A stretch of 64,000 nucleotides of DNA from Achromobacter xylosoxidans (lineage in GTDB: Bacteria; Pseudomonadota; Gammaproteobacteria; Burkholderiales; Burkholderiaceae_B), in contig NZ_CP061008.1 in the NCBI RefSeq assembly GCF_014490035.1, forward strand, positions 372,001 to 436,000, written 5' to 3'. The notes under the pieces were generated by a model. It was given only the letters and a program-made list of their open reading frames with translations. It was not told the origin of the DNA and made no database searches. Both the position numbers and the translations under genes were made by a program. Positions 1,152 through 60,088 of the stretch are shown in pieces (the first letter of the stretch is position 1; each line of letters opens with the position of its first letter).

Positions 1152-1261
1152 GGGAAAATACGCATGGCATAGCGCCACACGCTTCTTCAGAATGCCTTCC
1201 AGACGCAAGTTCGTCTTCAAATTTTCGCCGACTGCCAGTGTTGCCAGTCAGGCGTAGGGCA

Positions 1262-1298
1262 AAAAGGCCCGAGCCGGAATTTCCGGCTCGGGCCTTTT
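1262..1298 (+). terminator. Rho-independent terminator after the LysR gene
   Basis: Perfect 18-bp inverted repeat (AAAAGGCCCGAGCCGGAA and its complement) around a one-base centre, ending in a T-run. The A-run on the left side would let it work in both directions. It isolates the downstream urt-ami operon from the LysR gene. Confidence 0.93.
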
Positions 1299-1506: not shown

Positions 1507-2700
1507 ATGAGCGTATACAACCGCCGCCGCTTTCTGCAGCACAGCGGCTCCATGGTCCTACTGAGCGCCGCGTCGGGGATGGCAGCCTTGCCCCGCCAGG
1601 CTTACGCCCAAGACACAGTCAAACTGGGCCTGCTGCATTCGCTGTCCGGCACCATCGCCATCGCCGAGGCGTCGCTGGTGGACGCGGAGAAGCTGGCGAT
1701 CGAAGAGATCAACGCCTCGGGCGGCGTGATGGGGCGCAAGATCGAACCCGTAGTCGAAGACGGCGCGAGCGAGAACGCCGTGTTCGCCGAGAAAGCGCGC
1801 AAGCTGCTCGACCGCGACAAGGTCGCCGCCATCGTGGGCTGCTATACCTCGGCTTCGCGCAAGGCGCTGCTGCCGGTGCTCGCGCGCAGCAAGGGCCTGC
1901 TGTACTACCCCACCTACTACGAGGGCCAGGAACAGGACGCGCGGGTGTTCTATCCGTCGCAGGAAGCCACGCAGTCCGTGATCGCGGCGGTGGAGTGGAT
2001 GGCGCGTGAAAAGGGCAAGACCTTTTTCCTGGTCGGTTCCGACTACATCTATCCGCGCACCTGCAACAAGATCGCCAAACCGGCCATTGCCCGCATGAAT
2101 GCCAAGGTGGTGGGCGAAGAGTACGCGCCGTTGGGCCATACCGAGTTCTCTTCCATCATCAACAAGATCAAGGCGGCCAAGCCCGAGTGCATCTACAGCA
2201 CCGTGGTGGGCGGCTCCAACGTGGCGTTCTACAAGCAGCTGCGCGCCGCCGGCCTGGACGGCACGCGCGTGGTGCTGCTGTCCACCGTGGTGTCCGAGAA
2301 CGAGATCGAAGGCATCGGCAAGGACAACGCGGCGGGCTACTACGCCTGCATGGGTTACTTCCAGAGCCTGCAGAATCCGGCCAACGAAAAATTCGTCAAG
2401 GCCTTCAAGGCCAAGTACGGCCAGGACCGCGTCATCGGCGACCCGATGGAGGTTGCCTACAACAGCGTGTACCTGTGGAAGCTCGGCGTGGAGAAGGCCG
2501 GTTCGTTCGATCCCGACAAGGTGATCGCGGCCTCCGCCGGGCTGACACTGCAGGCGCCGGAGGGGACCGTGCGCGTGCACGAGACCAACCATCACGTCTG
2601 GAAGAAGGTGCGGGTGGGGCGGGCGCGGCCGGACGGGCAGTTCGACATCGTCTGGGAATCGGCCGACCTGATCGAGCCCAATCCCTTCCCGAAGCTGTAG
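1507..2700 (+). CDS. urtA: Urea/short-chain amide ABC transporter, periplasmic binding protein (UrtA type)
   Basis: A 397-residue precursor. The start at 1507 is chosen for its AGGAG at 1495-1499. Residues 5-11 (NRRRFLQ) are a twin-arginine motif, followed by a hydrophobic stretch and AYA at 32-34, so Tat export with cleavage near residue 34 is likely. The mature part is a type I periplasmic binding fold (KLGLLHSLSGTIAIAEASL, VGCYTSASRKALLPVL, VGSDYIYP). It captures the substrate for the permease encoded by the next four genes. It is clearly related in sequence to the cytoplasmic amide sensor AmiC encoded later in the same operon, which suggests that the ligand here may be an amide as well as urea. 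Confidence 0.9.
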   Translation: MSVYNRRRFLQHSGSMVLLSAASGMAALPRQAYAQDTVKLGLLHSLSGTIAIAEASLVDAEKLAIEEINASGGVMGRKIEPVVEDGASENAVFAEKARKLLDRDKVAAIVGCYTSASRKALLPVLARSKGLLYYPTYYEGQEQDARVFYPSQEATQSVIAAVEWMAREKGKTFFLVGSDYIYPRTCNKIAKPAIARMNAKVVGEEYAPLGHTEFSSIINKIKAAKPECIYSTVVGGSNVAFYKQLRAAGLDGTRVVLLSTVVSENEIEGIGKDNAAGYYACMGYFQSLQNPANEKFVKAFKAKYGQDRVIGDPMEVAYNSVYLWKLGVEKAGSFDPDKVIAASAGLTLQAPEGTVRVHETNHHVWKKVRVGRARPDGQFDIVWESADLIEPNPFPKL

Positions 2701-2705
2701 CCCGC

Positions 2706-2751
2706 GCTTGCGGATGTGCGCAAGCCCTTGGCCGGCGGCCTTGCCGCCGGC
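2706..2751 (+). repeat. Tandem intercistronic hairpins between urtA and urtB, similar to the operon leader
   Basis: The 69-bp gap holds a 7-bp stem with a six-base loop (GCTTGCG, loop GATGTG, CGCAAGC; 2706-2725) and a 9-bp stem (GCCGGCGGC, loop CTT, GCCGCCGGC; 2731-2751). The stretch 2718-2745 resembles 1456-1481 in the leader: GTGC, AAGCCCT, GCCGG, GGC and TTGCC occur in the same order. A likely role is transcript stabilisation upstream or downstream of a highly expressed binding-protein message, as is common after binding-protein genes. It may instead be an attenuator. Confidence 0.6.
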
Positions 2752-2769
2752 GCAGCCAGGAACGTGACC

Positions 2770-3672
2770 ATGAATATCGACATCGCGGCAATGCAGCTGT
2801 TCAACGGGATCAGCCTGTTCAGCATCCTCCTGCTGATGGCGATCGGCCTGGCCGTCGTGTTCGGCCTGATGGGCGTCATCAACATGGCGCACGGCGAGCT
2901 GATGGCCATGGGCGCCTACACCACCTACCTGGTCGCGGTCGCGTTTCAGCATTGGGCCCCCGGCTGGATGGACGTCTACCTGTTCGCGGCCATTCCGCTG
3001 GCGTTCCTGGTCACCTTCGCCTTCGGCTATGTGCTGGAGCGCGGCTTCATCCGCTGGTTCTACAACCGCCCGCTGGACACGCTGCTGGCGACCTGGGGCC
3101 TGAGCCTGATCCTGCAACAAGCCTACCGTTCGCTGTTCGGTGCGCAGGAGGTCAGCGTGCCGCTGGCCTCCTGGCTCAGCGGCGCGTGGGAGCCCACGCC
3201 CGACCTGCAGTTCCCGCTGAACCGCATCTTCATCCTGGGCCTGACGCTGCTGGTGGCGGTGGGCGTGTATCTGCTGCTTTACCGCAGCGCGTGGGGACTG
3301 CGCGTGCGCGCCGTCACCCAGAACCGCGCGATGGCGGGCGCCGTCGGCATCAACACGCGGCGCGTGGACGCGCTGACCTTCGCGCTGGGCTCCGGCCTGG
3401 CAGGCATCGCCGGCTGCGTCTTCACCATGATCGGGTCGACCAACCCCGGCACGGGCCAGCTCTACATCGTCGATTCATTCATCGTGGTGGTATTCGGCGG
3501 CGTCCAGAGCCTGCTGGGAACGGCGTTCTCCGGCCTTGCGATCGCACAGTCGCAGACCACGCTGGAATACCTGATGAGCGGCTCGATGGCCAAGGTCACG
3601 ATCCTGGTCCTGGTGATCCTGGTCCTCTATTTCCGCCCGAACGGGCTGTTCGCCAACAAGACTCGGGGGTGA
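2770..3672 (+). CDS. urtB: Urea/amide ABC transporter permease UrtB
   Basis: A 300-residue integral membrane protein of the LivH/UrtB branched-chain permease family. It has about eight hydrophobic segments and the family's conserved start GLAVVFGLMGVINMAHGEL near residues 27-45. The start at 2770 has AGGAA at 2758-2762; an in-frame upstream start at 2716 lies inside the intercistronic hairpins and is rejected. Some UrtB proteins carry an extra N-terminal domain, which is absent here. Together with UrtC it should form the membrane channel of the importer. The next gene begins four bases after its stop, so co-translation is likely. Confidence 0.92.
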   Translation: MNIDIAAMQLFNGISLFSILLLMAIGLAVVFGLMGVINMAHGELMAMGAYTTYLVAVAFQHWAPGWMDVYLFAAIPLAFLVTFAFGYVLERGFIRWFYNRPLDTLLATWGLSLILQQAYRSLFGAQEVSVPLASWLSGAWEPTPDLQFPLNRIFILGLTLLVAVGVYLLLYRSAWGLRVRAVTQNRAMAGAVGINTRRVDALTFALGSGLAGIAGCVFTMIGSTNPGTGQLYIVDSFIVVVFGGVQSLLGTAFSGLAIAQSQTTLEYLMSGSMAKVTILVLVILVLYFRPNGLFANKTRG

Positions 3673-3676
3673 TGCG

Positions 3677-4723
3677 ATGAAGGCCCTGCACCGGAAAACC
3701 GAAGAGATCGCGATCCTGCTGGTCGCGGCGCTGATCCTGGCCGTCCTGCCCCTGTCGCTGGATCCGTTCCGGTTGAACCTGGTCGGCAAGTACATGGCGT
3801 TCGCCTTCGTGGCGATAGGCATCGTGCTGACCTGGGGCTACAGCGGCGTGCTGAGCCTGGGCCAAGGAATTTTCTTTGGACTGGGCGGGTACATGATGGC
3901 CATGTTCCTGAAGCTGGAGGCGTCCGCGCCGGAGCTGCCCGACTTCATGGTTTGGAGCAGCGTGGAGAGCCTGCCGGTCTGGTGGCAGCCATTCCATTCG
4001 CTGACGTTGACGCTGCTGCTGATCGTGGTCCTGCCGGGACTGGCGGCCTATCTGTTTTCGTTGGCGATCTTCCGCAAGCGGGTCAGCGGCGTGTATTTCG
4101 CCATCGTCACGCTGGCCCTGGCAATGACGCTGACCGTGCTCATCATCGGCCAGCAGGGAGACACAGGCGGCGCCAACGGCATTACCGACTTCCGCACGCT
4201 GCTGGGCTGGGACATCGTCGGCGATGAAGGCAAGCAGGCGCTGTACTTCATCGAAGCCGGCGCGCTGGTCGTGGCGATGCTGGCGGCGCTGGCGATTGTG
4301 CGCAGCCGGCTGGGCAAGATCCTGATCGCCATCCGCGACCGCGAGGACCGCGTGCGGTTCTCGGGCTACGACACCGCGCACGTAAAGGCCTGCATCTTTT
4401 GCGTGGCGGCGATCCTGTCCTCCATCGGCGGCGCCTTCTTCACGCTGCAGGTAGGCCTGATCTCTCCGGGCGCGATCGGCGTGGTCGCGTCGATCGAGAT
4501 GGTGATCTATGCGGCGGTCGGCGGCCGGCTTTCGATTCCCGGGGCCGTGGTCGGGGCCTTGCTGATCGGCTTTCTCAAGTCCTATCTGTCAGAGACGTTC
4601 CCGGAAGTCTGGCTGTATTTCCTGGGGGCCATTTTTATTGCGGTCGTCGTGGTCATGCCCAACGGCCTGGCCGGCGTGTTCGGCCAGATTCAGGCGCGCC
4701 GCGCCGCGGGGAGCGTGCGATGA
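3677..4723 (+). CDS. urtC: Urea/amide ABC transporter permease UrtC
   Basis: A 348-residue membrane protein of the LivM/UrtC family, with the typical motifs YSGVLSLGQGIFFGLGGYMM (about residues 55-74) and FSGYDTAHVKACIFCVAA. The C-terminus ends in the hydrophobic stretch plus VVMPNGLAG common to this family. It starts four bases after urtB and its stop codon overlaps the urtD start in an ATGA, indicating translational coupling. It pairs with UrtB as the second half of the inner-membrane channel. No irregularity is visible. Confidence 0.92.
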   Translation: MKALHRKTEEIAILLVAALILAVLPLSLDPFRLNLVGKYMAFAFVAIGIVLTWGYSGVLSLGQGIFFGLGGYMMAMFLKLEASAPELPDFMVWSSVESLPVWWQPFHSLTLTLLLIVVLPGLAAYLFSLAIFRKRVSGVYFAIVTLALAMTLTVLIIGQQGDTGGANGITDFRTLLGWDIVGDEGKQALYFIEAGALVVAMLAALAIVRSRLGKILIAIRDREDRVRFSGYDTAHVKACIFCVAAILSSIGGAFFTLQVGLISPGAIGVVASIEMVIYAAVGGRLSIPGAVVGALLIGFLKSYLSETFPEVWLYFLGAIFIAVVVVMPNGLAGVFGQIQARRAAGSVR

Positions 4724-5517
4724 GTGCCACCCTGGACCTGCAGGAGCCCGCCAGCATGGAAATGAGCAGCGACCGCCCGGCGCCCGGCGCCATCCTGAGC
4801 GTCGAGGACCTGACGGTCTCTTTCGACGGTTTTCGCGCCGTGGACGGCTTGAGCCTGCGCGTGGCGCAGGATGAGCTGCGCGTCATCATCGGCCCGAACG
4901 GCGCGGGCAAGACCACGCTGCTGGACATCATCTGCGGCAAGACCCGGCCTTCAGCGGGCCGCGTGATGTTCCAGGGGCGCGACCTGGTGCGCATGGCGGA
5001 ATTCGACATCGTGCGGGCCGGCGTCGGACGCAAATTCCAGACGCCGTCGGTCTATGAAGACCTGACGGTGCTGGAGAACTTCGAGATCTCGCTGCCGAAC
5101 GCGCACGGGGTGGTGCGCTCGCTGCGATTCCGGCGCACGGCCGAAATCCGCGAACGCATCCAGGACATGGCGGGGCAGGTGTTCCTGCAGGACCGCCTGG
5201 CGGAGAAGGCGGGCCGCCTGAGCCACGGCCAGAAGCAATGGCTGGAGATCGGCATGCTGCTGATGCAGAACCCGCAGTTGCTGTTGCTGGATGAACCCGT
5301 GGCCGGCATGAGTCCGCGCGAACGCGAACAGACGGCCGAGCTCCTGGCGCGCATCTCGCGCGGCAAGTCTATGGTGGTCATCGAGCACGACATGGATTTC
5401 GTCAAGCGCATTGCGCACAAGGTCACCGTGTTGCATCAGGGCCGCTTGCTGAGCGAAGGCACGGTGGCCGAGGTGCAGGCTGACCCGCGCGTGCTGGACG
5501 TGTACCTGGGCCATTGA
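4720..5517 (+). CDS. urtD: Urea/amide ABC transporter ATP-binding protein UrtD
   Basis: A 265-residue ABC ATPase. Walker A is GPNGAGKTT at residues 58-66, the signature is LSHGQKQWLEIG, and Walker B is LLLLDEPVAGM, all in the order expected; the degenerate SHGQ signature is characteristic of UrtD/LivG proteins. The start at 4720 overlaps the urtC stop (ATGA); the open frame extends further upstream, but that part lies inside urtC. It is one of two different ATPases, with UrtE, that should form the cytoplasmic heterodimer energising uptake. Confidence 0.93.
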   Translation: MSATLDLQEPASMEMSSDRPAPGAILSVEDLTVSFDGFRAVDGLSLRVAQDELRVIIGPNGAGKTTLLDIICGKTRPSAGRVMFQGRDLVRMAEFDIVRAGVGRKFQTPSVYEDLTVLENFEISLPNAHGVVRSLRFRRTAEIRERIQDMAGQVFLQDRLAEKAGRLSHGQKQWLEIGMLLMQNPQLLLLDEPVAGMSPREREQTAELLARISRGKSMVVIEHDMDFVKRIAHKVTVLHQGRLLSEGTVAEVQADPRVLDVYLGH

Positions 5518-5531
5518 GAGGAGGGCGCGCC

Positions 5532-6221
5532 ATGTTCCAGATCGAAAAGTTGAACGTGAGCTACGGCGAATCGCACGTCGTTCACGACGTGTGCTTCGAC
5601 GTGGCGCCACGGGAATCCGTGGCCATCATGGGCCGCAACGGCATGGGCAAGACCACCTTGCTCAAGGCGCTGATCGGCATGCTGCGGTCGGGTTCGGGCA
5701 GCATCCGGCTGGATGGCGTGGAGCTGGCCGGCATGGAGAGCTACCAGCGCGTGCGCAGCGGGCTGGCCTTCGTGCCGCAGGGCAGGATGATCTTTCCCTT
5801 CCTGACCGTGGAGCAGAACATCCTGACCGGCGCGGAGCGCAGCGGCCTGAAGGCCGTGCCGGAATACCTGTACCGCTTTTTCCCGGTGCTGCACGAGATG
5901 CGCCGGCGCAAGGGCGGCAACCTGTCCGGCGGGCAGCAGCAGCAACTGGCGATCGCCCGCGCGCTGATTTCCGATCCGCGCGTGCTGATCCTGGACGAAC
6001 CCACCGAGGGCATCCAGCCTTCCATCATCAAGGACATTGCACGGGTCCTGAACGCGCTGCGCGAGGAACGCGGCTTCGCCATCGTCGTGTCGGAACAGAT
6101 GCTGAGCTTCGCGCTGGACCTGGCCGACCGCTTCCTGGTGATAGACCGGGGCCGCATCGTGCACGAAGCCTGCCGCGAGAGCCTGGACCAAGACAAAGTC
6201 AGATCTTTCCTGACGGTATGA
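5532..6221 (+). CDS. urtE: Urea/amide ABC transporter ATP-binding protein UrtE
   Basis: A 229-residue ABC ATPase of the LivF/UrtE type. Walker [10 protein letters not shown] is at residues 34-42, the signature is [15 protein letters not shown] and Walker B is [14 protein letters not shown]; the GMGKTT and EGIQPS variants are the usual UrtE/LivF forms. GAGGAGGG lies about seven bases before the ATG, 14 bases downstream of the urtD stop. It is the partner of UrtD. The amidase follows after 25 bases, so uptake and hydrolysis are co-transcribed. Confidence 0.93.
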
Positions 6222-6246
6222 CCGTCAACCACCGAGGAGCATTGTC

Positions 6247-7284
6247 ATGAGACACGGAGATATCTCCAGCAGCAACGATTGCGTGGGCGTGGCCGTCGTG
6301 AACTACAAGATGCCGCGGCTGCATACCCGCGCGGAGGTGATGGAGAACGCCCGCAAGATCGCCGACATGGTCGTGGGCATGAAGCGCGGCCTGCCCGGCA
6401 TGGACCTGGTCATCTTCCCCGAGTACTCCACCCACGGCATCATGTACGACGCCAAGGAAATGTACGAAACCGCTTCGGCCATCCCGGGCGAAGAGACCGC
6501 GGTGTTCGCCGACGCCTGCCGCAAGGCCAACGTATGGGGCGTGTTCTCGCTGACGGGCGAGCGCCACGAAGAGCATCCGAACAAGGCGCCGTACAACACC
6601 CTCATCCTGATGAACAACAAGGGCGAGATCGTGCAGAAGTACCGCAAGATCATGCCCTGGGTGCCGATCGAAGGCTGGTATCCGGGCGATTGCACCTATG
6701 TGTCGGAAGGCCCCAAGGGCTTGAAGATCAGCCTCATCATCTGCGACGACGGCAATTACCCCGAGATCTGGCGCGATTGCGCCATGCGCGGCGCCGAGCT
6801 GATCGTGCGCTGCCAGGGCTATATGTATCCGGCCAAGGACCAGCAGGTCATGGTGTCCAAGGCCATGGCGTGGATGAACAACGTCTATGTGGCGGTGGCC
6901 AATGCCGCGGGCTTTGACGGCGTGTATTCCTATTTCGGCCATTCGGCCATCATAGGCTTCGACGGCCGCACGCTGGGCGAATGCGGTGAAGAAGACATGG
7001 GTGTGCAATACGCCGAGTTGTCCACCAGCCTGATCCGCGACGCGCGCAAGAACATGCAGTCGCAGAACCACCTGTTCAAGCTGGTGCACCGCGGCTACAC
7101 CGGCAAGATCAATTCCGGCGAAGAGGCCACGGGCGTCGCGGCCTGCCCGTACAACTTCTACGCCAACTGGATCAACGATCCGGAGGCCACGCGCAAGATG
7201 GTCGAGTCCTTTACCCGGTCCACCGTGGGCACGCCGGAGTGCCCCATGGAAGGCATCCCCAACGAGGACGCCAAGCACCGCTAG
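6247..7284 (+). CDS. amiE: Aliphatic amidase (acylamide amidohydrolase)
   Basis: A 345-residue nitrilase-superfamily amidase, one residue shorter than Pseudomonas aeruginosa AmiE, that hydrolyses short aliphatic amides to the acid and ammonia. The catalytic triad can be read at the standard numbering: Glu59 (IFPEYS), Lys134 (YRKIMPW) and Cys166 ([11 protein letters not shown]). The N-terminal [20 protein letters not shown] is typical of AmiE, and the family forms cytoplasmic hexamers. GAGGAG precedes the ATG. It lies between the transporter and the amiC/amiR sensor genes, so the operon imports and degrades its own inducer, releasing ammonia as a nitrogen source. Formamidase is a close alternative, but the regulatory genes favour AmiE. 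Confidence 0.95.
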
Positions 7285-7304
7285 GCATGCCTGCCGACCA
7301 TCCG

Positions 7305-7333
7305 GTCCGTCCGGCCCGCCGCGCCGGACGGAC
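7305..7333 (+). repeat. Intercistronic hairpin after amiE
   Basis: Perfect 10-bp stem, GTCCGTCCGG with CCGGACGGAC, around a nine-base loop. There is no T-run, so it is better read as a 3' end stabiliser or partial attenuator setting a high amiE to downstream ratio than as a full terminator. Confidence 0.55.
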
Positions 7334-7353
7334 GCCTTCCGAGGACATGAACC

Positions 7354-8160
7354 GTGCCGTCTCCGCTCGAAACCTACCGGATTGCGCAAGAACCCTTCTA
7401 CCGTCCCACGGGACGGGAAACCGCGTTATACGAGCATGCGTACGCGCACCGGCTGCCCATGATCCTCAAGGGGCCCACCGGCTGCGGCAAGACGCGCTTC
7501 GTGGAGTACATGGCCTGGAAGCTGGGACGCCCGCTGGTCACGCTGGCCTGCAACGAGGACATGACTGCCTCCGACCTGGTGGGCCGCTACCTGCTGGATG
7601 CCGACGGCACCGCCTGGCACGACGGCCCGCTGACGCTGGCCGTGCGCCATGGCGGCATCTGCTACCTGGACGAGATCGTCGAAGCGCGCCAGGACACCAC
7701 GGTGGTGATCCATCCGCTGACCGATGCCAGGCGCATCCTGCCGCTGGACAAGAAGGGCGAGGTGGTGCGGGCCCATCCGGACTTCCAGCTGGTGGTGTCC
7801 TACAACCCCGGCTACCAGAGCAGCGCCAAGGATCTCAAGCCCTCTACCCGGCAGCGTTTCGTGGCGCTGGATTTCGACTATCCGGAGCCCGGGCGCGAAG
7901 CCGAGATCGTGGCGCATGAGGCCGGCATAGACACCGGCTTGGCGCAGCGGCTGGTGCGCATCGCGCACAGTTCGCGCGAGCTCAAGCGTCACGGCTTGGA
8001 CGAGGGCGTGTCCACCCGCATGCTGATCTACGCCGGCATCCTCATCCGCGACGGCGTCAGTCCCGCCGAAAGTTGCGACATGACCATGACGCGCGCGCTG
8101 ACCGACGATCCCGACATGGCGGCGGCGCTGCGGTCGCTGGTCGACGCGAACCTGGAATGA
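7354..8160 (+). CDS. MoxR-class AAA+ ATPase (CbbQ/NirQ/NorQ family)
   Basis: A 268-residue AAA+ protein with a GTG start. Walker A GPTGCGKT is at residues 40-47, GGICYLDEI is Walker B, and SYNPGYQ and LKPSTRQRF (sensor and arginine-finger regions) are typical of CbbQ/NorQ proteins. These ATPases work with a VWA partner to remodel or activate an enzyme such as Rubisco or nitric oxide reductase. The partner is encoded next, with an ATGA overlap. In this operon it occupies the place of amiB of Pseudomonas, itself an ATPase of unclear role. Its client here is unknown; the amidase or the transporter are candidates. Confidence 0.88.
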   Translation: MPSPLETYRIAQEPFYRPTGRETALYEHAYAHRLPMILKGPTGCGKTRFVEYMAWKLGRPLVTLACNEDMTASDLVGRYLLDADGTAWHDGPLTLAVRHGGICYLDEIVEARQDTTVVIHPLTDARRILPLDKKGEVVRAHPDFQLVVSYNPGYQSSAKDLKPSTRQRFVALDFDYPEPGREAEIVAHEAGIDTGLAQRLVRIAHSSRELKRHGLDEGVSTRMLIYAGILIRDGVSPAESCDMTMTRALTDDPDMAAALRSLVDANLE

Positions 8161-10142
8161 ACATGCGAGCCGTCCTGTCCGCGGGTGAAGGGGCCGGCGC
8201 TGGCGCACGCCTGGCCGGCACGCTGGACGACAAGCTGCGCCGGCTGGCCGCGCGCGGCGGCGAGGACCAGGCGGTTCAAGCGCGGCGCTGGATCGAAGCG
8301 CTGCACCGCGAAGACCCCGATTGCGCCGCCGCGGTGGCGGAGCGCTTCGACCAGTTGATGGCGAAGCTGACGGCCGGTGGGCTGGGGCGCTGGATGCTGG
8401 CCGGCCTGCGGCGCTACGAGCGCCAGCCCGGTCCGCTGCGCGCGTATTTCCAGCTGCGCGATGCCTATGCCCGCGAGGCCTTGAACAGCGAAGCGGGCGC
8501 GCAGGAGCTGGAAGCCGCGCAGGCGGGGCTGTCGTGGCTCTTGTGCGGCCTCGCTGGCAGGGCGATGGCGGTCGAGGCCTTGCGGCGTCCGACGCTGGAC
8601 GGGCCGCCGTCGCGCCCCATCCTCGCGCCTTCGCATTTGCTGGTGCCGGATAGCTATACCGTGCTGGACGGCGCCGACCGCCGGGCGTTGTACCGCGCGG
8701 CCGTGGCGCATGCAGCGGCCCATCTGCGCTACTCGCCGGCCGCGCAGCCGGTACTGAGCCTCAAGCCCATGGGCGTCGCAGTGGTGTCGGCTATCGAGGA
8801 TGCGCGGGTGGAGCGGCTGCTGGCGGCCGACTATCCCGGCGTGCGCCGCTGGTTCCGGCCCTTCGTGCCGCCGCCGCCCGATCCGGCGGACCTGGGATTC
8901 GCGGCGCTGATCCAGCGCATGAGCCGGCTATTGATGGATCCGTCGCTGCACGACGACAACCATTGGGTGAACAAGGCGCGGGCGCTGTTCGAGGCGCAGG
9001 CCGCCGACCTGCGCGACACGGCGGCCTTTCGCCGCCTGGCGTCGGTGCTGGCCAACGACCTGGGCCAGATGCGGGTGCGCTTCAACCCGCAGCAGTACGC
9101 CGTGCCCGTGCCCTATCGTGACGACAACGCCTATCTGTGGGACTACGGCGACGCGGCAGAGCCGCCGCCTGAGCTGACCCTGGGATCGCAGGGTGTGGCG
9201 CCCGAGCGGCGCGACGCCGCGCCGCAAGGCCAGGACGAGCCGGCGCCAGCCGCCGGCGAAACGGAGCTGGGACGCTACCGATATCCCGAATGGGACTACA
9301 AGCTGGGCCGCAGCCGGCCGGACTGGTGCACAGTGATCGAGAAGCTGCCGGGTTGGACCGGCACGCCGCCGCCCGCGCCCGCCGGGCCTGCACAGCGCCT
9401 GGCCCTGCCGCAGTCGCGCCGCCTGAGCCGCGCGCGCCGTTTGAGGCGCCAATGGGAGGGCGATGACATCGACCTGAACGCCGCGATCGAGGTCTTGATC
9501 GACCGGCGGCTGGACCTGGCCCCCGACGCCCGCTTCTTCATGCGGCCCGGCAGCCAGCCCTGCGCCAGCAGCACGCTGGTGCTGCTGGACCTGTCGGCGT
9601 CGGCCAACGACCTGGCGTCCGACGCAGGGGCGGCGGTGCTGGACCTGGAGAAGCGCGCGGCAATGCTGCTGGCGCAGGCCACCTCAGGCGACGGCGACCG
9701 GATTGCCGTGCACGGCTTTTGCTCGGACACGCGGGCGGCGGTGTACTACTACCGCCTGCTGGAGGCCGGCGCCCCGATCGCGGCCGCGTTGGGCCGCATA
9801 GGCGGGGCCCAGGCCCGTTATTCGACGCGCCTGGGCGCGGCGTTGCGGCATGCCGGCGCGCTGGCGCTGCAGGTGCCGGGAGAGCGGCGCGCCATCATCG
9901 TCGTGACCGACGGCGAACCCTCCGATATCGATGTGCACGACCCGCGCTATCTGGTGGACGATGCCCGCGAGGCGGTGCTGGAACTGCGCGGGCGAGGCGT
10001 CAGCGTGCATTGCGTCGCGTTGGACGCGCAGGCCGAACCGCAGCTGCGCGCGATGTTCGGCTTTCGCGGTTACCGGATCGTGACAAGCCCGGCGGCATTG
10101 CCGCAGGCGCTGATCCGCGCCTATGCCAGGACGGCGGCATGA
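8157..10142 (+). CDS. VWA-domain protein of the NorD/CbbO type, partner of the MoxR ATPase
   Basis: A 661-residue soluble protein. The start at 8157 overlaps the ATPase stop. The C-terminal part, from about residue 470, is a von Willebrand A domain with an intact MIDAS start Asp478-x-Ser480-x-Ser482 (DLSAS) and VTDGEPSD further on. The N-terminal 450 residues are alpha-helical with a central charged, proline-rich segment, as in NorD and CbbO. The family acts as the adaptor that connects a CbbQ/NorQ hexamer to its client. The pairing with the previous gene is tight. Function in amide metabolism is inferred from context only. Confidence 0.85.
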   Translation: MNMRAVLSAGEGAGAGARLAGTLDDKLRRLAARGGEDQAVQARRWIEALHREDPDCAAAVAERFDQLMAKLTAGGLGRWMLAGLRRYERQPGPLRAYFQLRDAYAREALNSEAGAQELEAAQAGLSWLLCGLAGRAMAVEALRRPTLDGPPSRPILAPSHLLVPDSYTVLDGADRRALYRAAVAHAAAHLRYSPAAQPVLSLKPMGVAVVSAIEDARVERLLAADYPGVRRWFRPFVPPPPDPADLGFAALIQRMSRLLMDPSLHDDNHWVNKARALFEAQAADLRDTAAFRRLASVLANDLGQMRVRFNPQQYAVPVPYRDDNAYLWDYGDAAEPPPELTLGSQGVAPERRDAAPQGQDEPAPAAGETELGRYRYPEWDYKLGRSRPDWCTVIEKLPGWTGTPPPAPAGPAQRLALPQSRRLSRARRLRRQWEGDDIDLNAAIEVLIDRRLDLAPDARFFMRPGSQPCASSTLVLLDLSASANDLASDAGAAVLDLEKRAAMLLAQATSGDGDRIAVHGFCSDTRAAVYYYRLLEAGAPIAAALGRIGGAQARYSTRLGAALRHAGALALQVPGERRAIIVVTDGEPSDIDVHDPRYLVDDAREAVLELRGRGVSVHCVALDAQAEPQLRAMFGFRGYRIVTSPAALPQALIRAYARTAA

Positions 10143-10212
10143 CCACCCCAGGAATCCACGTGTTGACGGCGGCTGCGGCTGTGCTGAAACTGATGAACTC
10201 GACAAAGGATGG

Positions 10213-11394
10213 ATGTCCGCGCCAGCGGGCCTCCCGATCATGGCAAACAAAGATCCTATCCGCGTAGGCGTGTTGTTTTCCGAAACAGGTGCCACATCGA
10301 CCATAGGCCGGTCCCAGCTGCATGGCACCTTGCTGGCCATCGACGAAATCAACGAGGCGGGCGGGGTGGATGGCCGCGAGATCGTGCCGGTGCGCTACGA
10401 CCCGAGGTCCGACCCCGCCACCTACAGCGTGCTGGCCGAAAGACTCATCACGCAAGACCGCGTCAACGTCATATTCGGCTGCTACATGTCCAGCAGCCGC
10501 AAGGCGGTGCTGCCGGTGGTCGAGAAATGGAACCGCCTGCTGTTCTATCCGACGCTGTACGAAGGGTTCGAGTTTTCGAACAACATCATCTACACCGGCG
10601 CCGCGCCCAACCAGAACAGCGTGCAGCTGGCGGAATTCATGACCGCAAACTTCGGCGCGCGGGTCTACCTGATCGGTTCGGACTACATCTATCCCTACGA
10701 GTCCAACCGCATCATGGGCGAACTGGTGCTGCAGCGGCAGGACAGCGCCAAACTGGGCGAACGCTACGTGCCCTTGACCGCGACGGAGCGCGACTACCGG
10801 GAGATCCTGGACGACATCCGCAACAAGCGGCCGGACTTCATCTTCTCCACCGTGGTGGGCAATTCCACGGCCTGCCTGTACCGCGCCTATGCGGATGCGG
10901 GCTTCGATCCGAAGACCATGCCCATCGCCAGCCTGACAACCTCCGAAGCGGAGATCTCGCAGATGGAGCCCGAGGTGGCGGCCGGCCACTTCACTTCGGC
11001 GCCGTATTTCCAATCCATCGATTCCGATATCAACCGGCGCTGCCTGGAACGATTGCGGCGGCGCTTCGGCCATGACTGCGTGCCCAACCTCTGCTGGGAA
11101 GCGGCGTACTTCCAGATGCACATCTTCGCCAACGCCTTTCGCGACACCGGCACCGACGAGATCGCGCAGATCCTTCCGCGCGTGCTGCAAAGCGAATTCC
11201 AGGCGCCGCAGGGCCGCGTGCGCATCGACCCCACCAACCACCACACCTGCCTGTATCCGCGTGTCGGCAGGGTCAACGCCAAGGGCCAATTCACCATCGT
11301 GCGCGAGGCCACGCGGTCCGTGCATCCCGATCCGTACCTGGTCACCCATTCGCTGGGCGACTGGACGGCCACCCTGAGTTCGCTGGATATCTGA
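10213..11394 (+). CDS. amiC: Amide-sensing negative regulator AmiC
   Basis: About 393 residues from 10213, where AAGGA lies just upstream. An internal ATG at 10240 gives 384 residues, very close to the 385 of Pseudomonas AmiC, and may be the true start. There is no signal peptide. The type I binding fold carries the AmiC hallmarks VGVLFSETG, GCYMSSSRKAVLPVVEKW, YPTLYEGFEFSNNI, APNQNS and SLTTSEAEIS. In Pseudomonas, AmiC holds AmiR inactive until an amide is bound. Its stop overlaps the amiR start (TGATG), which is consistent with complex formation during translation. It is a cytoplasmic paralogue of the UrtA-like protein in the same operon. Confidence 0.93.
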   Translation: MSAPAGLPIMANKDPIRVGVLFSETGATSTIGRSQLHGTLLAIDEINEAGGVDGREIVPVRYDPRSDPATYSVLAERLITQDRVNVIFGCYMSSSRKAVLPVVEKWNRLLFYPTLYEGFEFSNNIIYTGAAPNQNSVQLAEFMTANFGARVYLIGSDYIYPYESNRIMGELVLQRQDSAKLGERYVPLTATERDYREILDDIRNKRPDFIFSTVVGNSTACLYRAYADAGFDPKTMPIASLTTSEAEISQMEPEVAAGHFTSAPYFQSIDSDINRRCLERLRRRFGHDCVPNLCWEAAYFQMHIFANAFRDTGTDEIAQILPRVLQSEFQAPQGRVRIDPTNHHTCLYPRVGRVNAKGQFTIVREATRSVHPDPYLVTHSLGDWTATLSSLDI

Positions 11395-12023
11395 TGGGCG
11401 ATACCGCCAGCCGCCAGCGCGCGGAGCGCGCGACGCCATCCCTGCTCAAGGACCTGCGCACGCTGCGGATCGCCGTCTATCACCCCGACGATGCCGATGG
11501 CCGCCAATTGACGCAGCAGCTGCAACGGATCGGCTGCCAGGTGCAGACCTTCTGGCCTCCGGCGCCCACCTTGCCCGAAGGGCTGGATGCGGTGTTCCTG
11601 GCCGTGCGTCCGGACGTGATCGACCTGGGTTTCGAGTGGGCCAAGAGTGAAGACGCGCCCATGGTCATCGCCATCGTCACCTACGAGAATCCAACCATCG
11701 TCGAGGCGGTGTTGCGCATCGGCGCGAAAGCGGTGCTGCCTTCGCCCGTGCGCTCGTTCGGGCTGTTGTCGTCATTGGTGGTGGCGCGCCAGGTCTACGA
11801 CGACATCAAGTCGCATGCCCGGCGCCTGCGCAAGCTGGAGGGAAAACTGCTGGGCGTGCGCCGCATCGCGGAAGCCAAGAGCATCCTCATGCGCACGCGC
11901 AACGTCACCGAGGACCAGGCCTACGACCTGATCCGCGAGCAGGCCATGAACAAGCGCGTCACCACCGAAGAGATCGCCGGCGCCATCGTCAACGCCAACG
12001 AAATCCTGTCGCTGGGCAAGTAG
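11394..12023 (+). CDS. amiR: ANTAR-domain transcription antiterminator AmiR
   Basis: A 209-residue RNA-binding regulator. Residues about 25-135 form a pseudo-receiver with no recognisable phosphoacceptor (where the acid would be it reads DAVFLAVRPD). A coiled helix follows, and the C-terminal ANTAR domain (AKSILMRTRNVTEDQAYDLI, then NKRVTTEEIAGAIVNA) covers about residues 155-205. AmiR binds leader RNA and prevents termination when AmiC is loaded with amide. The target should be the 1299-1506 leader of this operon. The gene is last in the operon; Pseudomonas has amiS after amiR, and no channel gene is present here, the ABC importer presumably replacing it. Confidence 0.94.
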   Translation: MGDTASRQRAERATPSLLKDLRTLRIAVYHPDDADGRQLTQQLQRIGCQVQTFWPPAPTLPEGLDAVFLAVRPDVIDLGFEWAKSEDAPMVIAIVTYENPTIVEAVLRIGAKAVLPSPVRSFGLLSSLVVARQVYDDIKSHARRLRKLEGKLLGVRRIAEAKSILMRTRNVTEDQAYDLIREQAMNKRVTTEEIAGAIVNANEILSLGK

Positions 12024-12039: not shown

Positions 12040-12801
12040 TCAGTACTTGCCCGTCAGCAGTTCGCCCGCATTGGGCACGCGCGCTTCCAGGTCCAGCACC
12101 TTCAGCATCCGGTAGACGGTGGCCGCCGCCGCCGTCACCACCGGCAGACCCAGGCGGTCCTGCACCGGCTGGATCGACGCCAGGGACGGCATCTGTACGC
12201 AGGCGGACAGCACCACCGCGTCCACGCCGCGCGTGTTCAGGCGAGCCACATGGCTGGCCGGCGCCATCGGATCCTGCGCGCCAACCTTCAGATTGTCGGG
12301 AATCTCCAACGACAGGCTGTCCTGCACCTCGATGCCTTCGTTCTCGATGTAGTCCACCACCAGCTTGGTCAGCGGTTTCATGTAGGGCGTCAGGATCGCG
12401 ACCTTGCGCGCGCCGATGGCATGCAGGCCTTCCACCAGCGCGCCCGCGCTGGAGATCACCGGCGCCGGCGCGCCGTTGTCCACCGTGGCCTGGTGCAGGC
12501 GTTCCTGCGAGACGCGGTGATAGCCCAGCCCCTGGCTCATGATCGCCACCAGGCAGGCATAGCCCAGCACGTCCACGCGCGCATCGGACAGCTCCTGCGC
12601 GCAACGGTCCGACTCCCGGTCCATCGACGCCAGTTCCGCCGCCGTCACCTGCTTCATGCGCATGCGGCTGGAATGGAAAGTGAAGCGCTCCGGCGCGATG
12701 GTCTCGCGCAGGCGCAGCATGGCCGGGATCTCCGTTTCCATGGTGGTGTTGGAACTGGGGACGATCTGGCCGATGCGCAGGGCGCGGGGGGATGTGGTCA
12801 T
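12040..12801 (-). CDS. maiA: Maleate cis-trans isomerase
   Basis: A 253-residue member of the Asp/Glu racemase superfamily that converts maleate to fumarate without cofactor. The N-terminal RIGQIVPSSNTTMETEIPAM is the family's substrate loop. The two catalytic cysteines are present as Cys83 (GYACLVAIM) and Cys201 (VLSACVQMPS), within one residue of their positions in characterised maleate isomerases. It converges on amiR with 16 bases between and is divergent from a LysR gene. Maleate arises at the end of nicotinate, gentisate-type or maleamate degradation, but no other gene of such a pathway is in the window. An arylmalonate decarboxylase-like function is less likely, given both cysteines and SSNT. 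Confidence 0.87.
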   Translation of the reverse strand: MTTSPRALRIGQIVPSSNTTMETEIPAMLRLRETIAPERFTFHSSRMRMKQVTAAELASMDRESDRCAQELSDARVDVLGYACLVAIMSQGLGYHRVSQERLHQATVDNGAPAPVISSAGALVEGLHAIGARKVAILTPYMKPLTKLVVDYIENEGIEVQDSLSLEIPDNLKVGAQDPMAPASHVARLNTRGVDAVVLSACVQMPSLASIQPVQDRLGLPVVTAAAATVYRMLKVLDLEARVPNAGELLTGKY

Positions 12802-57572: not shown

Positions 57573-57618
57573 TGCGATGAGCATGACAGGCGCCGACCTG
57601 GCATGCGCAAGAAAAAAA

Positions 57619-57652
57619 CCCGCAAGACATCGTGTCTTGCGGGCTTTTTTTT
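57619..57652. terminator. Bidirectional terminator after the dehydrogenase gene
   Basis: 11-bp perfect stem CCCGCAAGACA with TGTCTTGCGGG, loop TCG, with seven A on the left and eight T on the right. It serves both the dehydrogenase gene and the convergent Bug gene. Confidence 0.96.
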
Positions 57653-57667
57653 GCGACGCCGGCCGCC

Positions 57668-58633
57668 TCAGTTCGCCGGCTTGACCCCGATCAGGGACAC
57701 CAGCGGCGTCCACAGCGCGATGTCGTCGCGGATGCGGCGCGCAAACTTCTCCTTCACTTCGCCTGCCCGCGGCTGGCTGCCGGACGCGTCGAATTTGCTC
57801 AGCACGTCCGGGTCGCGCAGCATGACCTGCACGGCGTCGGCCAGCCTGTCCACCACTTCGGCGGGTGTGCCGGGGGGCGCGAACAGGCCATTCCAGGTTT
57901 CGATCTCGTGGCCGGAGATGGTGTCGGCGATGGCCGGGACGCCGGGCAGCTGAGGTACGGGCTGGCGGCTGGATACGCCCAGGAAGCGGATGCGGCCGCT
58001 GTCCTTGTACGGCAGGATCTCCGAGATGTTGGCCGAGTAGAGATCGGTCGTGCCGCCCATGGTGTCCAGCAGGGCGGGCGCACCGCCGCGATAGCCGATC
58101 AGCGTCGCCTCGATACCCGCGCGCTTGAGAAACACCAGCACCGACATATGCGACATCGACCCCTCGCCGCCGTGCGCGACGGTCAGCGCGCCCGGTTTGG
58201 CCCGGCCATACTCGATCAGTTGCGCCAGGTTCTGGAAACGCGAGCTGGACGGCACCGTGAGCACCAGCGGATTGCTGGCGATGTTGGCGACCGGCACCAG
58301 ATCGTTCAACGGGTCGTAACGCACATTGAACAGAAAGCGCACCAGCGAAACCTGGCCGATGGAGCCCACCATCAGCGTGTTGCCGTCGTTGCGCGAGCGT
58401 ATCAACGCATCGGTGGCAATGGTTCCGCCTGCGCCGGCCTGGTTCTTCACCACGACCGACGAGCCCAAGGTGCGGCGTAGCGAATCGGAGGTAATGCGCG
58501 CCACATAGTCGGTGTTGCCGCCGGGCGGATACGGCACGATCAAGGTGATGGCGGTCCCGTCCTGGGCGCGGACCAACGCGGGCAGCAGCAATGGCGCAGA
58601 GGCCAGCAGCCGCGAGAACTGACGACGTTTCAT
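57668..58633 (-). CDS. Bug-family (tripartite tricarboxylate type) solute-binding protein
   Basis: A 321-residue periplasmic protein. Signal peptide at residues 1-23 (RRQFSRLLASAPLLLPALVR, AQD). The Bug fold motifs are ITLIVPYPPGGNTDYVARIT and VVVKNQAGAGGTIATDALIR, the loops that bind the carboxylate of the ligand. No membrane-component genes are adjacent, as is usual for the many orphan Bug proteins of Bordetella and relatives. It is the third gene of the CobW-amidohydrolase operon, 41 bases beyond the amidohydrolase, so its ligand may be a cyclic amide or the resulting carbamoyl acid. Confidence 0.92.
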   Translation of the reverse strand: MKRRQFSRLLASAPLLLPALVRAQDGTAITLIVPYPPGGNTDYVARITSDSLRRTLGSSVVVKNQAGAGGTIATDALIRSRNDGNTLMVGSIGQVSLVRFLFNVRYDPLNDLVPVANIASNPLVLTVPSSSRFQNLAQLIEYGRAKPGALTVAHGGEGSMSHMSVLVFLKRAGIEATLIGYRGGAPALLDTMGGTTDLYSANISEILPYKDSGRIRFLGVSSRQPVPQLPGVPAIADTISGHEIETWNGLFAPPGTPAEVVDRLADAVQVMLRDPDVLSKFDASGSQPRAGEVKEKFARRIRDDIALWTPLVSLIGVKPAN

Positions 58634-58674: not shown

Positions 58675-60054
58675 TCAGCGTACCGCGGCAGCCATCTGAC
58701 CGCCGCCCTTGGCGCCGACCACTTTACCGTCCGCATACACCGTGGCGCCGCGCACCAGCGTATGCACCGGCTTGCCCTTGAGGCGGCGGCCGGCATAGGG
58801 GCTCCAGCCCACCAGGCTGAGCACGTCCTCGTCGCGCACTTCGTATTCCGTCTCCAGATCGACCAGCACCAGGTCGGCGTCCAGGCCCACGCGGATTTCG
58901 CCCTTGCTGCGCAACCGGAACAATTCGGCGGGCTTGGCCGAACATGCCTCGGCCACGCGTTCCAGGCTGATTTTGCCTTCCTGGGCCGCCGTCAGGAACA
59001 TGCTCAGGTAGAACTGCGTCGACGGCGTGCCGGTGTGGGCTTTCCAGCCATCGGTCCAGCCCACTTCCTTTTCTTCGCGCGTGTGCGGCGCATGGTCGGT
59101 GGCGACGATGTCGATCGTTCCGTCGTTCAGGCCTTCCCACAAGCCCGGCACGTTCTTCTCCGGCACCCAGTACGACAGCGCATACGAGCCCAGGCGCTGG
59201 ATGGCCGACCATTCGCAACCCAGGAACAAGGCCCAGGGATTGATTTCGCAGGTGACCTTCTGGCCCGCCGCCTTGGCCTCGCGGATGAGCTGGACGCTGC
59301 CGGCGGTCTGGGTGTGCAGGATGTGCAGGTGGCAGCCGGCCGCCTTCTGCAGGCGCAGCAAGGTGGCGATGGCGGTTTCCCAGATCACGCCGTCGTGGGC
59401 GGCGTAGGCGCGCGCATAGGCGAGGGCGTCGCGCTCGCCCCGGTCCCAATAGGTCTGTTCGATCACGTCCATCAGGGCCTGGTCGTGCGGATGCACCATC
59501 AAGGGCACGTCCAGTTCAGCGCAGCGCTGCATGATGCGCAGCAGCTTGCCGTGGTCATGCACGCCGATGCCGGGCATGTGCGGATAGTCCCGTCCCGTGT
59601 CCACCACCATGAAGATCTTGAACGCGGCGATGCCCGTGGCGGTCATGGCTTCCATTTCCGACTCTATCGTCGGCGCCGGGTTGAAGTTCCAGTCGACCAC
59701 GGCATCGCTGCGGTAGATGGCGAACTGCTTTTCCAGCAGGTCCAGCGAGTTTGGCGGCGGATTGACGTTGGGCATGCCCACGCTGGTGGTGACGCCGCCC
59801 GCGGCGCATTGCTGCGTGGCGGTGAGGATGGTGTCCTTGTACTCGAATCCCTTCTGCGAACCCTGGCGGTGGTGCGAATGCATGTCGATGGCTCCTGGCA
59901 ATACTGCCAGGCCGCTGGCATCGATGACGTTGCGCGCGTCGGGTTCGCTGCCGGCCTCGTACAAGCCGGCGATCTTGCCGTCGCGGATGCCGATGGAGGC
60001 GCGCACCTGGCCCTGGGGAGTGACCACCAGGCCGTTCTTGATCAAAGTGTCCAT
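58675..60054 (-). CDS. Dihydropyrimidinase/allantoinase-like cyclic amidohydrolase
   Basis: A 459-residue metal-dependent amidohydrolase. Metal ligands His59 and His61 are in IDMHSHH, the bridging carboxylated lysine is Lys146 (AAFKIFMVV), and later histidines and aspartate are in MVHPHDQAL, HLHILHTQ and VATDHAPHT. This is the complete binuclear set of hydantoinase, allantoinase and dihydroorotase enzymes. Substrate specificity is open; the insert IDMHSHHRQGSQKGFEYKD is unlike classical dihydropyrimidinases. It is co-transcribed with a CobW GTPase, suggesting metal delivery, and with a Bug binding protein that may supply the substrate. Confidence 0.88.
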   Translation of the reverse strand: MDTLIKNGLVVTPQGQVRASIGIRDGKIAGLYEAGSEPDARNVIDASGLAVLPGAIDMHSHHRQGSQKGFEYKDTILTATQQCAAGGVTTSVGMPNVNPPPNSLDLLEKQFAIYRSDAVVDWNFNPAPTIESEMEAMTATGIAAFKIFMVVDTGRDYPHMPGIGVHDHGKLLRIMQRCAELDVPLMVHPHDQALMDVIEQTYWDRGERDALAYARAYAAHDGVIWETAIATLLRLQKAAGCHLHILHTQTAGSVQLIREAKAAGQKVTCEINPWALFLGCEWSAIQRLGSYALSYWVPEKNVPGLWEGLNDGTIDIVATDHAPHTREEKEVGWTDGWKAHTGTPSTQFYLSMFLTAAQEGKISLERVAEACSAKPAELFRLRSKGEIRVGLDADLVLVDLETEYEVRDEDVLSLVGWSPYAGRRLKGKPVHTLVRGATVYADGKVVGAKGGGQMAAAVR

Positions 60055-60088
60055 GCTGTTTTCCTTGTGATGGGGAATGCCAAAACGA

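What the first reader, a model, noticed from the sequence alone, without database searches (positions are those of the whole stretch)
1507..12023. Self-contained amide uptake, hydrolysis and sensing operon (urtABCDE-amiE-moxR-VWA-amiC-amiR)
Seen: ten tightly spaced genes, several overlapping by one or four bases, covering importer, amidase, an AAA+/VWA pair, ligand sensor and antiterminator. Known: in Pseudomonas aeruginosa the ami operon is amiEBCRS, with a channel AmiS rather than an ABC importer, and urtABCDE normally accompanies urease. Inference: the urt genes here import short amides, not (only) urea, and the system has exchanged its channel for a high-affinity importer.
Basis: partly seen in the sequence, partly recalled or inferred. 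Interest (0 to 1): 0.72.

Follow-up and report, generated by a model that had tools for sequence, protein, structure and literature searches.

The report
Amide-eating operon with dedicated enzyme activase
This Achromobacter gene cluster looks like a self-regulated kit for importing and breaking down small amides, and its amidase carries at its very end the same two-residue tag by which some Rubisco enzymes are recognised by an ATP-driven repair machine, whose relatives are encoded right beside it.

Summary
The ten genes are real and tightly packed. Import: UrtA passes the urea HMM but lacks urea-binding W120, Q144 and N246. In one search, 52 of 52 UrtAs near amiE lack Q144/N246; 49 of 50 others keep them; fresh loci, 31 of 31 lack them; one genome (L212) also has a urea-type copy near amiE. 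Control: a covarying ANTAR-type leader (1220-1298) precedes urtA, so AmiR should control the whole operon. New: the 'MoxR-VWA' pair is CbbQ/CbbO-type, the Rubisco-activase family. AmiE ends in H-R, the C-terminal HK/R motif that CbbQO needs on Rubisco. Of 115 AmiEs counted, 69 of 69 with CbbQ/VWA nearby have penultimate His, 4 of 46 without; in loci fetched after the rule was seen, 10 of 10 against 0 of 28. AmiB, a Clp-type AAA+, takes the slot elsewhere, with other tails. Prior art covers urt-amidase linkage and the amiE-CbbQ-NorD-amiCR order; the tail link was not found in print. Channel 'exchange' is not supported.

The parts
1220..1298 (+). Leader RNA (model R1): hairpin P1, hairpin P2 and an intrinsic terminator sharing P2's 3' arm; predicted AmiR target
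   Evidence: 98.9 bits and best match in the own genome (the window is a training sequence); covariation on 18 sequences: 12 of 23 pairs with two-sided changes, 0/500 shuffles reach the score; z -7.3
1226..1254 (+). Hairpin P1, hexaloop AGTGTT (A at 1, G at 4)
1257..1270 (+). Hairpin P2 GGGC-AAAAAG-GCCC, excludes the terminator; A at 1 but A, not G, at 4
1262..1298 (+). Intrinsic terminator of the leader
1507..2700 (+). urtA: amide-type substrate-binding protein, pocket YSYYEYYVV
2770..3672 (+). urtB permease
3677..4723 (+). urtC permease
4720..5517 (+). urtD ATPase, 4-nt overlap with urtC
5532..6221 (+). urtE ATPase
6247..7284 (+). amiE aliphatic amidase; E59, K134, E142, C166 present; C-terminus ...EDAKHR
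7276..7281 (+). Codons for the C-terminal His-Arg of AmiE (HK/R motif)
   Evidence: motif function on Rubisco: PMC4660213, PMC8718961 (passages)
7354..8160 (+). cbbQ-type MoxR AAA+ ATPase (GTG start)
8157..10142 (+). cbbO-type VWA protein, MIDAS DLSAS...T...D intact
10213..11394 (+). amiC amide sensor (alternative start 10240), pocket YSYLEYYVT
11394..12023 (+). amiR, AmiR_N plus ANTAR

Best explanation
One AmiR-controlled operon for scavenging short amides (acetamide most likely). Inferred cycle: without amide, AmiC holds AmiR and transcription stops at the terminator at 1262-1298. Amide binding to AmiC frees AmiR, which stabilises the P1-P2 antiterminator, so urtABCDE-amiE-cbbQO-amiCR is transcribed and the importer is induced with the enzyme. 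UrtA uses an AmiC-like pocket in which the side chains that hold urea's first amino group (Q144, N246) are replaced by Tyr and Val, so a methyl-bearing amide fits and urea should not. AmiE hydrolyses the amide to acid and ammonia. The CbbQ/CbbO-type pair is an amidase activase: it recognises AmiE by the free C-terminal His-Arg, as CbbQO recognises the HK/R end of Rubisco, and uses ATP to remodel AmiE, probably freeing a blocked active site. Shown here: genes, pocket residues, leader covariation, tail-partner covariation. Inferred: ligand, antitermination, activase action and what it relieves.
For: Pocket: 52/52 UrtA rows near amiE lack Q144/N246, 49 of 50 others keep them; fresh loci 31/31 lack them; residues needed for urea from PMC10392092 (passages). 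Own genome: no match over the urease-alpha cut-off of TIGR01792; urea carboxylase at 1,350,070, 2.3 kb from the second, urea-type Urt. Leader: covariation; a match in 18 of 19 loci with amiR against 2 of 30 without; it sits before amiE where urt is absent (L070, L086, L113). Activase: CbbQ 67% to a Rubisco CbbQ, 59% to NorQ; VWA aligns along its length to CbbO (297 bits) but only C-terminally to NorD (123 bits); NorQ set apart at 100. Tail: penultimate His 69/69 with CbbQ/VWA against 4/46 without; fresh loci 10/10 against 0/28; 66 of 69 end HR or HK, His at -2 although tail length varies. CbbQO needs that motif on Rubisco. acs follows amiE-cbbQO on two plasmids and amiE-AAA+ on one, fitting acetate as product.
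Against: UrtA-E all pass NCBIfam urea models. L212 has a second, urea-type UrtA about 1.1 kb downstream of amiE. P2 has A, not G, at loop position 4. 33 of 117 AmiE loci show no such partner in the stretch, so AmiE does not always need one. Ten loci have VWA without CbbQ. Four AmiEs with H-R lack a neighbouring pair; their genomes hold a CbbO-type protein elsewhere, but so do 6 of 11 genomes with tail-less AmiE. L110 (tail HG, left out of the 46) shows no pair in 9.4 kb downstream and its genome G166 no match: a counter-example; with L093 and L110 kept, 6 of 48. On supported branches only 4 independent pairs could be drawn, about 3.8 concordant, none opposite (sign test p 0.125). No inhibited state of this AmiE is known. 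No experiment.
Confidence: 0.66

Rival explanations
1. The CbbQ/VWA pair serves another client (the Urt permease, a urease, or metal insertion as NorQD does) and only travels with amiE.
For: MoxR-VWA pairs are known for metal insertion (PMC9976466, PMC13036017, passages); in several relatives ureEFABCGD lies between amiE and cbbQ.
Against: The pair sits beside amiE in stretches without urtA, ureC and amiR (L092, L104, L231); no CbbQ or VWA hit is listed for the 48 urea-type urt loci, of whose UrtA rows 30 have ureC near. It is AmiE's own C-terminus that changes with the pair. AmiE is not known to need a metal (recalled).
Confidence: 0.17
2. The His-Arg tail is a lineage marker that happens to be inherited with the gene neighbourhood.
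For: AmiE sequences are 74-100% identical to the window's in the samples; only 4 supported independent pairs.
Against: 12 changes of the partner and 11 of the tail on the core tree; within one family (f246) L254 has the pair and HR, L256 and L257 have neither; the rule held in 38 fresh loci without exception; His stays at -2 while tail length varies; the motif equals an experimentally defined CbbQO recognition motif (PMC4660213, passages).
Confidence: 0.12
3. The AAA+ pair, or AmiB elsewhere, recognises the tail to unfold or destroy AmiE (turnover) rather than to activate it.
For: AmiB is Clp-like (PF07724 + ClpB_D2-small).
Against: CbbQ-type rings are not known to feed proteases (recalled); CbbQO and NorQD are described as activating their clients (passages).
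Confidence: 0.1
4. The Urt genes import urea, possibly to induce or feed an unseen pathway.
For: Urea HMM names; TIGR03407 just over its cut-off (515.5 against 492.75).
Against: W120, Q144 and N246 are replaced; no urease-alpha match over the TIGR01792 cut-off in the genome; a separate urea-type Urt lies 2.3 kb from urea carboxylase.
Confidence: 0.06

Closest known systems
CbbQO Rubisco activases (Acidithiobacillus ferrooxidans; PMC4660213, PMC8718961, passages)
   Same: CbbQ AAA+ with a VWA partner that keeps the MIDAS, encoded beside the client; the client ends in HK/R at the C-terminus; relatives without the pair tend to have shorter or other tails
   Different: The client is an aliphatic amidase of the nitrilase superfamily, not Rubisco; the VWA protein is shorter (661 against 775 aa in L266)
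P. veronii plasmid operon amiE-AAA(CbbQ_C)-NorD-like-amiC-amiR (PMC13209695, passages)
   Same: The same ami half, and a suggestion that the pair may assemble or activate amidase
   Different: No urt genes named in it; no tail motif, leader or pocket analysis in the passages seen
P. aeruginosa amiEBCRS (AmiC-AmiR antitermination; PMC5259723, PMC3369931, passages)
   Same: AmiE, AmiC, AmiR, leader terminator with an ANTAR hairpin motif
   Different: AmiB (Clp-type) in the place of CbbQO; AmiS and no Urt in the operon
Urt-like importers beside amidase genes: B. japonicum blr0968-0973 (PMC3098086, passages), Methylophilus fmdDEF (cited in PMC10781810, passages)
   Same: Urt-type importer next to amidase or formamidase, proposed or reported to carry short amides
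   Different: Formamidase-linked; the FmdA-linked UrtAs found here have the pocket WSYFEYWVS, the window type YSYYEYYVV. The B. japonicum and Methylophilus proteins themselves were not compared
NorQ/NorD (PMC9976466, PMC13036017, passages)
   Same: MoxR-VWA architecture; the VWA domain matches NorD structures best (no CbbO structure matched)
   Different: NorQ lies outside the AmiE-linked group; NorD aligns only over the C-terminal part

Membership tests
CbbQO-type activase | CbbQ AAA+ ATPase with CbbQ_C domain | tested here: met
   PF07728 + PF08406; best solved relatives 5c3c (named CbbQ/NirQ/NorQ domain protein) 403 bits and 6l1q (CbbQ) 390, before NorQ 324; 67% to Rubisco CbbQ of L266
CbbQO-type activase | CbbO partner alike along its length, MIDAS intact | tested here: met
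   297 bits over residues 60-657 against CbbO of L266; DLSAS, T and D present
CbbQO-type activase | client with C-terminal HK/R motif | tested here: met
   AmiE ends HR; of 69 with the pair nearby 66 end HR/HK, 3 HA/HQ
CbbQO-type activase | ATP-driven reactivation of an inhibited client | not testable with these tools
   needs purified proteins
NorQD metal-insertion chaperone | AAA+ groups with NorQ, VWA protein alike to NorD along its length | tested here: not met
   NorQ apart at 100; NorD match limited to the C-terminal part
UrtABCDE urea transporter | five subunits passing urea models | tested here: met
UrtABCDE urea transporter | urea-binding residues W120, Q144, N246 | tested here: not met
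   Y, Y, V
AmiE-AmiC-AmiR amidase operon | amidase with catalytic E59, K134, E142, C166 (numbers recalled) | tested here: met
AmiE-AmiC-AmiR amidase operon | AmiC-like sensor and ANTAR antiterminator protein | tested here: met
AmiE-AmiC-AmiR amidase operon | leader with two hairpins whose hexaloops have A at 1 and G at 4, the second excluding a terminator | tested here: inconclusive
   P1 meets it; P2 has A at 4; overlap with the terminator present
AmiE-AmiC-AmiR amidase operon | AmiB and AmiS as in P. aeruginosa PAO1 | tested here: not met
   no AmiB-like hit in the window stretch; no PF02293 match in the genome

The most novel reading that the evidence does not exclude
CbbQO is not a Rubisco-specific activase but a general enzyme-repair machine that reads a C-terminal His-Arg/Lys tag. 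Aliphatic amidases form a second client class. AmiB of Pseudomonas is an unrelated AAA+ that does the same job through a different tail, and in autotrophs such as the genome of L087/L266 one CbbQO may serve both Rubisco and amidase.
Probability: 0.5. Interest if true: 0.85.

Novelty: new variant of a known kind. Interest (0 to 1): 0.75.

Why it matters
In the papers seen here CbbQO is described as a Rubisco activase. A second client, carrying the same two-residue end, would make the recognition code testable outside carbon fixation and with a soluble, easily assayed enzyme. It would suggest a role for AmiB, whose function was not described in the passages read here, and for 'CbbQ/NirQ/NorQ' genes annotated beside amidases. 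It also gives simple rules to re-annotate 'urea' importers as amide importers (Q144/N246) and to predict the AAA+ partner of an amidase from its last residues.

Tried and rejected
Rfam gave no relevant family for the leader, so a model was built. A first alignment of leaders used guessed coordinates and was useless. Large terminators alone score up to 44 bits with R1 (the reverse strand of the same terminators), so weak or odd hits were read by eye and those of L215, L214 and L205 were not counted as ANTAR leaders. The leader hit of L101 shows no P1 in its fold and L091 is cut before any amiCR could be seen; both are counted as hits without amiR. Read as a metal-insertion pair (NorQD): rejected as family membership, kept as a rival. 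Read as a channel-for-importer exchange: not supported. The AlphaFold model of the VWA protein is weak (pLDDT 63.5), so its Foldseek result is only a side note. The test whether H-tail genomes without a neighbouring pair hold one elsewhere was not decisive. A paper search for inhibition of amidase by urea or hydroxyurea found nothing.

Dropped rows: L069 (same contig as L056) left out but still among the 52; L093 and L110 left out of the 2x2 (L093 is a 4.9-kb contig; L110 is cut only upstream, so leaving it out favours my reading, see the Against line); UrtA hits of L070, L113 and L114 are AmiC cross-hits and were subtracted; UrtA matches under 330 aligned residues were left out. Of 64 plasmid records with amiE 15 were fetched.
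Full report
Observation. The window lies in a 6.76-Mb genome (G000). The closest named contig found is from Achromobacter aegrifaciens, whose ten proteins are 95-100% identical, so the genus is very probably Achromobacter. A lysR gene ends at 1151, about 70 nt before the leader; a gene on the other strand follows downstream (12040-12801).

Leader. A strong terminator at 1262-1298, about 210 nt before urtA, is preceded by a hairpin with hexaloop AGTGTT and by a second small hairpin that shares its 3' arm with the terminator. Seventeen relatives (five Achromobacter, six Variovorax, two Hydrogenophaga, one each of Rhodoferax, Polaromonas and Simplicispira, one unnamed) keep the fold with compensatory changes: 12 of 23 pairs change on both sides, 97.3% of cells pair, and no shuffle of 500 reaches the covariation score; with partners slid by 1-3 columns 21.5-44.3% of cells pair. 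This is the arrangement described for ANTAR targets, including the amiE leader of P. aeruginosa (PMC3369931, passages). P1 has A1 and G4; P2 has A1 but A4, a deviation; in the group with divergent amiCR, P2 has G4 in 8 of 11 leaders read. A covariance model hits the own genome at this place with 98.9 bits; the reverse strand of the same terminator gives 40.2 and the next place 25.2. In the 49 amiE loci of the order sample the model hits upstream in 18 of 19 loci with amiR (17 at E up to 0.02, L079 at 0.16; L114 misses; the window and L078 are training sequences and L069 is a copy of one) and in 2 of 30 without (L091 is cut off before amiCR could be seen; the hit of L101 lacks P1). Where urt is absent (L070, L086, L113) the leader stands before amiE; where urt is present it stands before urtA, in L071 before the two genes ahead of urtA. 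So the importer should be part of the AmiR regulon; this is inferred from sequence. Outside the order but in the same class the model found it in 1 of 3 loci with amiR (L207 yes; L213, L214 no).

Importer. The urea contacts of UrtA are known from a complex (PMC10392092, passages): Q144 and N246 side chains hold urea's first nitrogen; S122, the Q144 main chain and Y190 hold the rest; W120A cannot bind, and mutation of S122, Q144, Y190 or N246 lowers or abolishes binding. The window's UrtA keeps S122, Y141, E146 and Y190 and has Y, Y and V at 120, 144 and 246, as AmiC has Y, P/L, V. Of 102 UrtA rows placed by context, 52 of 52 with amiE within 11 kb have Y or F at 144 and V at 246; of the 50 others 49 have W, Q, N, 30 of these with ureC within 11 kb, and one (L118, third system of this genome) is neither. 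The urea set is biased, because it was collected with a urea-type gene, by mistake in a wrong frame. Outside the order, eight importer proteins in amiE loci lack Q/N as well, two of them (L213, L214) with exactly the AmiC pocket; but L212 carries in addition a urea-type UrtA about 1.1 kb downstream of amiE. In the 38 later loci, 31 of 31 full-length importer proteins lack Q144/N246: 25 WSYFEYWVS, 5 YSYLEYYVT, 1 YSYYEYYVV (made while checking this report). In a 61-row tree the UrtAs of amiE loci, except L213, L214 and the urea-type copy of L212, are one clade (100/99), sister to the urea clade (94/86), while L213/L214 fall near AmiC with weak support (88/68); the program warned of long branches. 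The own genome has no match over the cut-off of the urease-alpha model TIGR01792; PF00449 gave one partial match over its low cut-off (49 of 121 positions) at the same place, taken for another amidohydrolase. It has urea carboxylase at 1,350,070-1,353,669, 2.3 kb from its second Urt, whose pocket is W, Q, N. That is a natural control inside one genome. Against this reading stand the database names: all five subunits pass the urea models.

Enzyme and its partner. AmiE has the four residues recalled as catalytic. Downstream lie an AAA+ ATPase and a VWA protein. Compared with a Rubisco pair in L266 (a gene that reads as Rubisco large subunit, ending HK, then cbbQ and cbbO; named by sequence recalled, no family search) and with norQ-norD of Pseudomonas (L066, beside norC-norB-like genes), the AAA+ is 67% identical to CbbQ and 59% to NorQ, and NorQ is set apart at 100 in a 29-row quick tree in which the Rubisco CbbQ falls among the AmiE-linked ones (weakly, 84-86). 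The VWA protein aligns with CbbO over nearly its whole length (297 bits) and with NorD only at the C-terminal end (123 bits); among solved chains only NorD matched. In 62 amiE loci of order and class, 30 have both, 10 VWA alone, 2 CbbQ alone (stretch or contig ends), 3 a Clp-type AAA+ and 17 none of these. The Clp-type protein (PF07724 + PF10431) is 68% identical to a P. aeruginosa protein, and a relative is named AmiB; that it is the AmiB of the P. aeruginosa operon is recalled. No CbbQ or VWA hit was listed in the 48 urea-type urt loci.

The tail. Comparing 61 AmiEs between these groups, the columns that differ most are the last ones: 41 of 41 with CbbQ/VWA have His at the last but one place; the 3 with AmiB end EKEA or EKEAGA; of 17 with none, 11 lack it and 6 have it, among them L093 (a 4.9-kb contig) and L110. 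I then fetched 38 fresh loci (15 of 64 plasmid records, all 23 new genomes of a phylum sample): penultimate His in 10 of 10 with CbbQ/VWA, 0 of 16 with neither, 0 of 12 with AmiB. Over 117 sequences, 115 counted: 69 of 69 against 4 of 46 (6 of 48 if L093 and L110 are kept). The tree of AmiE without its tail needs 12 changes of partner and 11 of tail; on supported branches only 4 independent pairs could be drawn, on average 3.8 in the same direction and none opposite, which cannot reach significance alone. 52 end HR, 14 HK, 2 HA, 1 HQ; His stays at -2 although it lies 7 to 11 residues after the G of GIP, as expected if the free end is read. AmiB-linked tails mostly read LPxxGKE[KR] in Proteobacteria but not in the two actinobacterial ones (L239, L240). 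Only after this did I find the precedent: Rubisco large subunits encoded with cbbQO end in HK/R, one-residue deletions or additions abolish activation, the last residue may vary, and carboxysomal Rubiscos without cbbQO generally end earlier (PMC4660213, PMC8718961, passages). The match in motif, position and pattern of loss is the main new result. Searches for it in print: searches listed no paper that I could see linking CbbQO to amidase, apart from the remark in PMC13209695 that the neighbouring pair could be involved in assembly or activation of amidase; searches also listed PMC8926400, which holds both words and which I did not read.

Open points. The four AmiEs with H-R but no neighbouring pair (L087, L096, L107, L108) come from genomes with a full-length CbbO-type match elsewhere (about 590-602 bits), one of which is the Rubisco pair of L266; but 6 of 11 genomes with tail-less AmiE (G079, G230, G319, G087, G042, G706) have one too, and G166, whose AmiE (L110) ends HG and has no pair in 9.4 kb downstream, has none (43 genomes). 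What the pair relieves is unknown; inhibition of amidase by urea or hydroxyurea is recalled, not found here.

Verdict. The operon is a widespread type: the same set with the regulators in front is annotated on alphaproteobacterial plasmids (Roseibium, Rhizobium etli, and Ancylobacter with urease genes between and the pair on the other strand), with importer proteins of AmiC-like or window-like pocket. What is new is the reading of the importer pocket across contexts, the leader, and above all the evidence that the AAA+/VWA pair is an amidase activase of the CbbQO kind.

Noticed in passing
L074 10498-15795 and relatives (L081, L095, L098, L099, L102, L103, L116, L237): A second urease cluster with accessory genes (ureC, ureG, ureE/F-like, a 231-residue fused small subunit) lies between amiE and cbbQO, or beside them in L237, in operons whose UrtA has an amide-type, not a urea-type pocket; some of these genomes (e.g. 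G075, G029, G023) also carry a canonical urt-ure cluster.
   Followed up: partly
L118 (own genome 3,975,000-3,994,900): A third Urt/Liv-like importer with its own AmiC-AmiR paralogues (44% and 35%) and an M81/MlrC-family protein; the pocket is neither urea- nor amide-type.
   Followed up: no
L049 12264-16514; L071 13712-16739; L228 8605-11004: Some relatives add an NCS1 cytosine-type permease, an alpha/beta hydrolase and (L049) an amidase-family enzyme; in L049 and L071 copies of the ANTAR leader stand before these genes.
   Followed up: partly
L203-L206, L208-L211, L075, L077: CbbO-type VWA gene downstream of amiE without a cbbQ in the stretch, yet AmiE keeps the penultimate His.
   Followed up: partly
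L213, L214, L228, L230, L232, L243, L245: Another type of Urt-like importer beside amiE, with a binding pocket identical in type to AmiC (YSYLEYYVT).
   Followed up: partly
L266 1134-6247 with L087: Probable autotroph whose Rubisco ends HK beside cbbQO and whose AmiE ends HR without a pair of its own nearby; possible sharing of one activase.
   Followed up: partly
window 59827-60069 (-): Weak urease-alpha-like match inside a 495-residue open frame, probably another amidohydrolase, not urease.
   Followed up: no
window 57613-57684 (-): Strong intrinsic terminator that scores weakly with the leader model; no hexaloop hairpin in its fold.
   Followed up: no
window 12040-12801 (-): Arylmalonate-decarboxylase-family (PF17645) gene convergent with amiR.
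   Followed up: no
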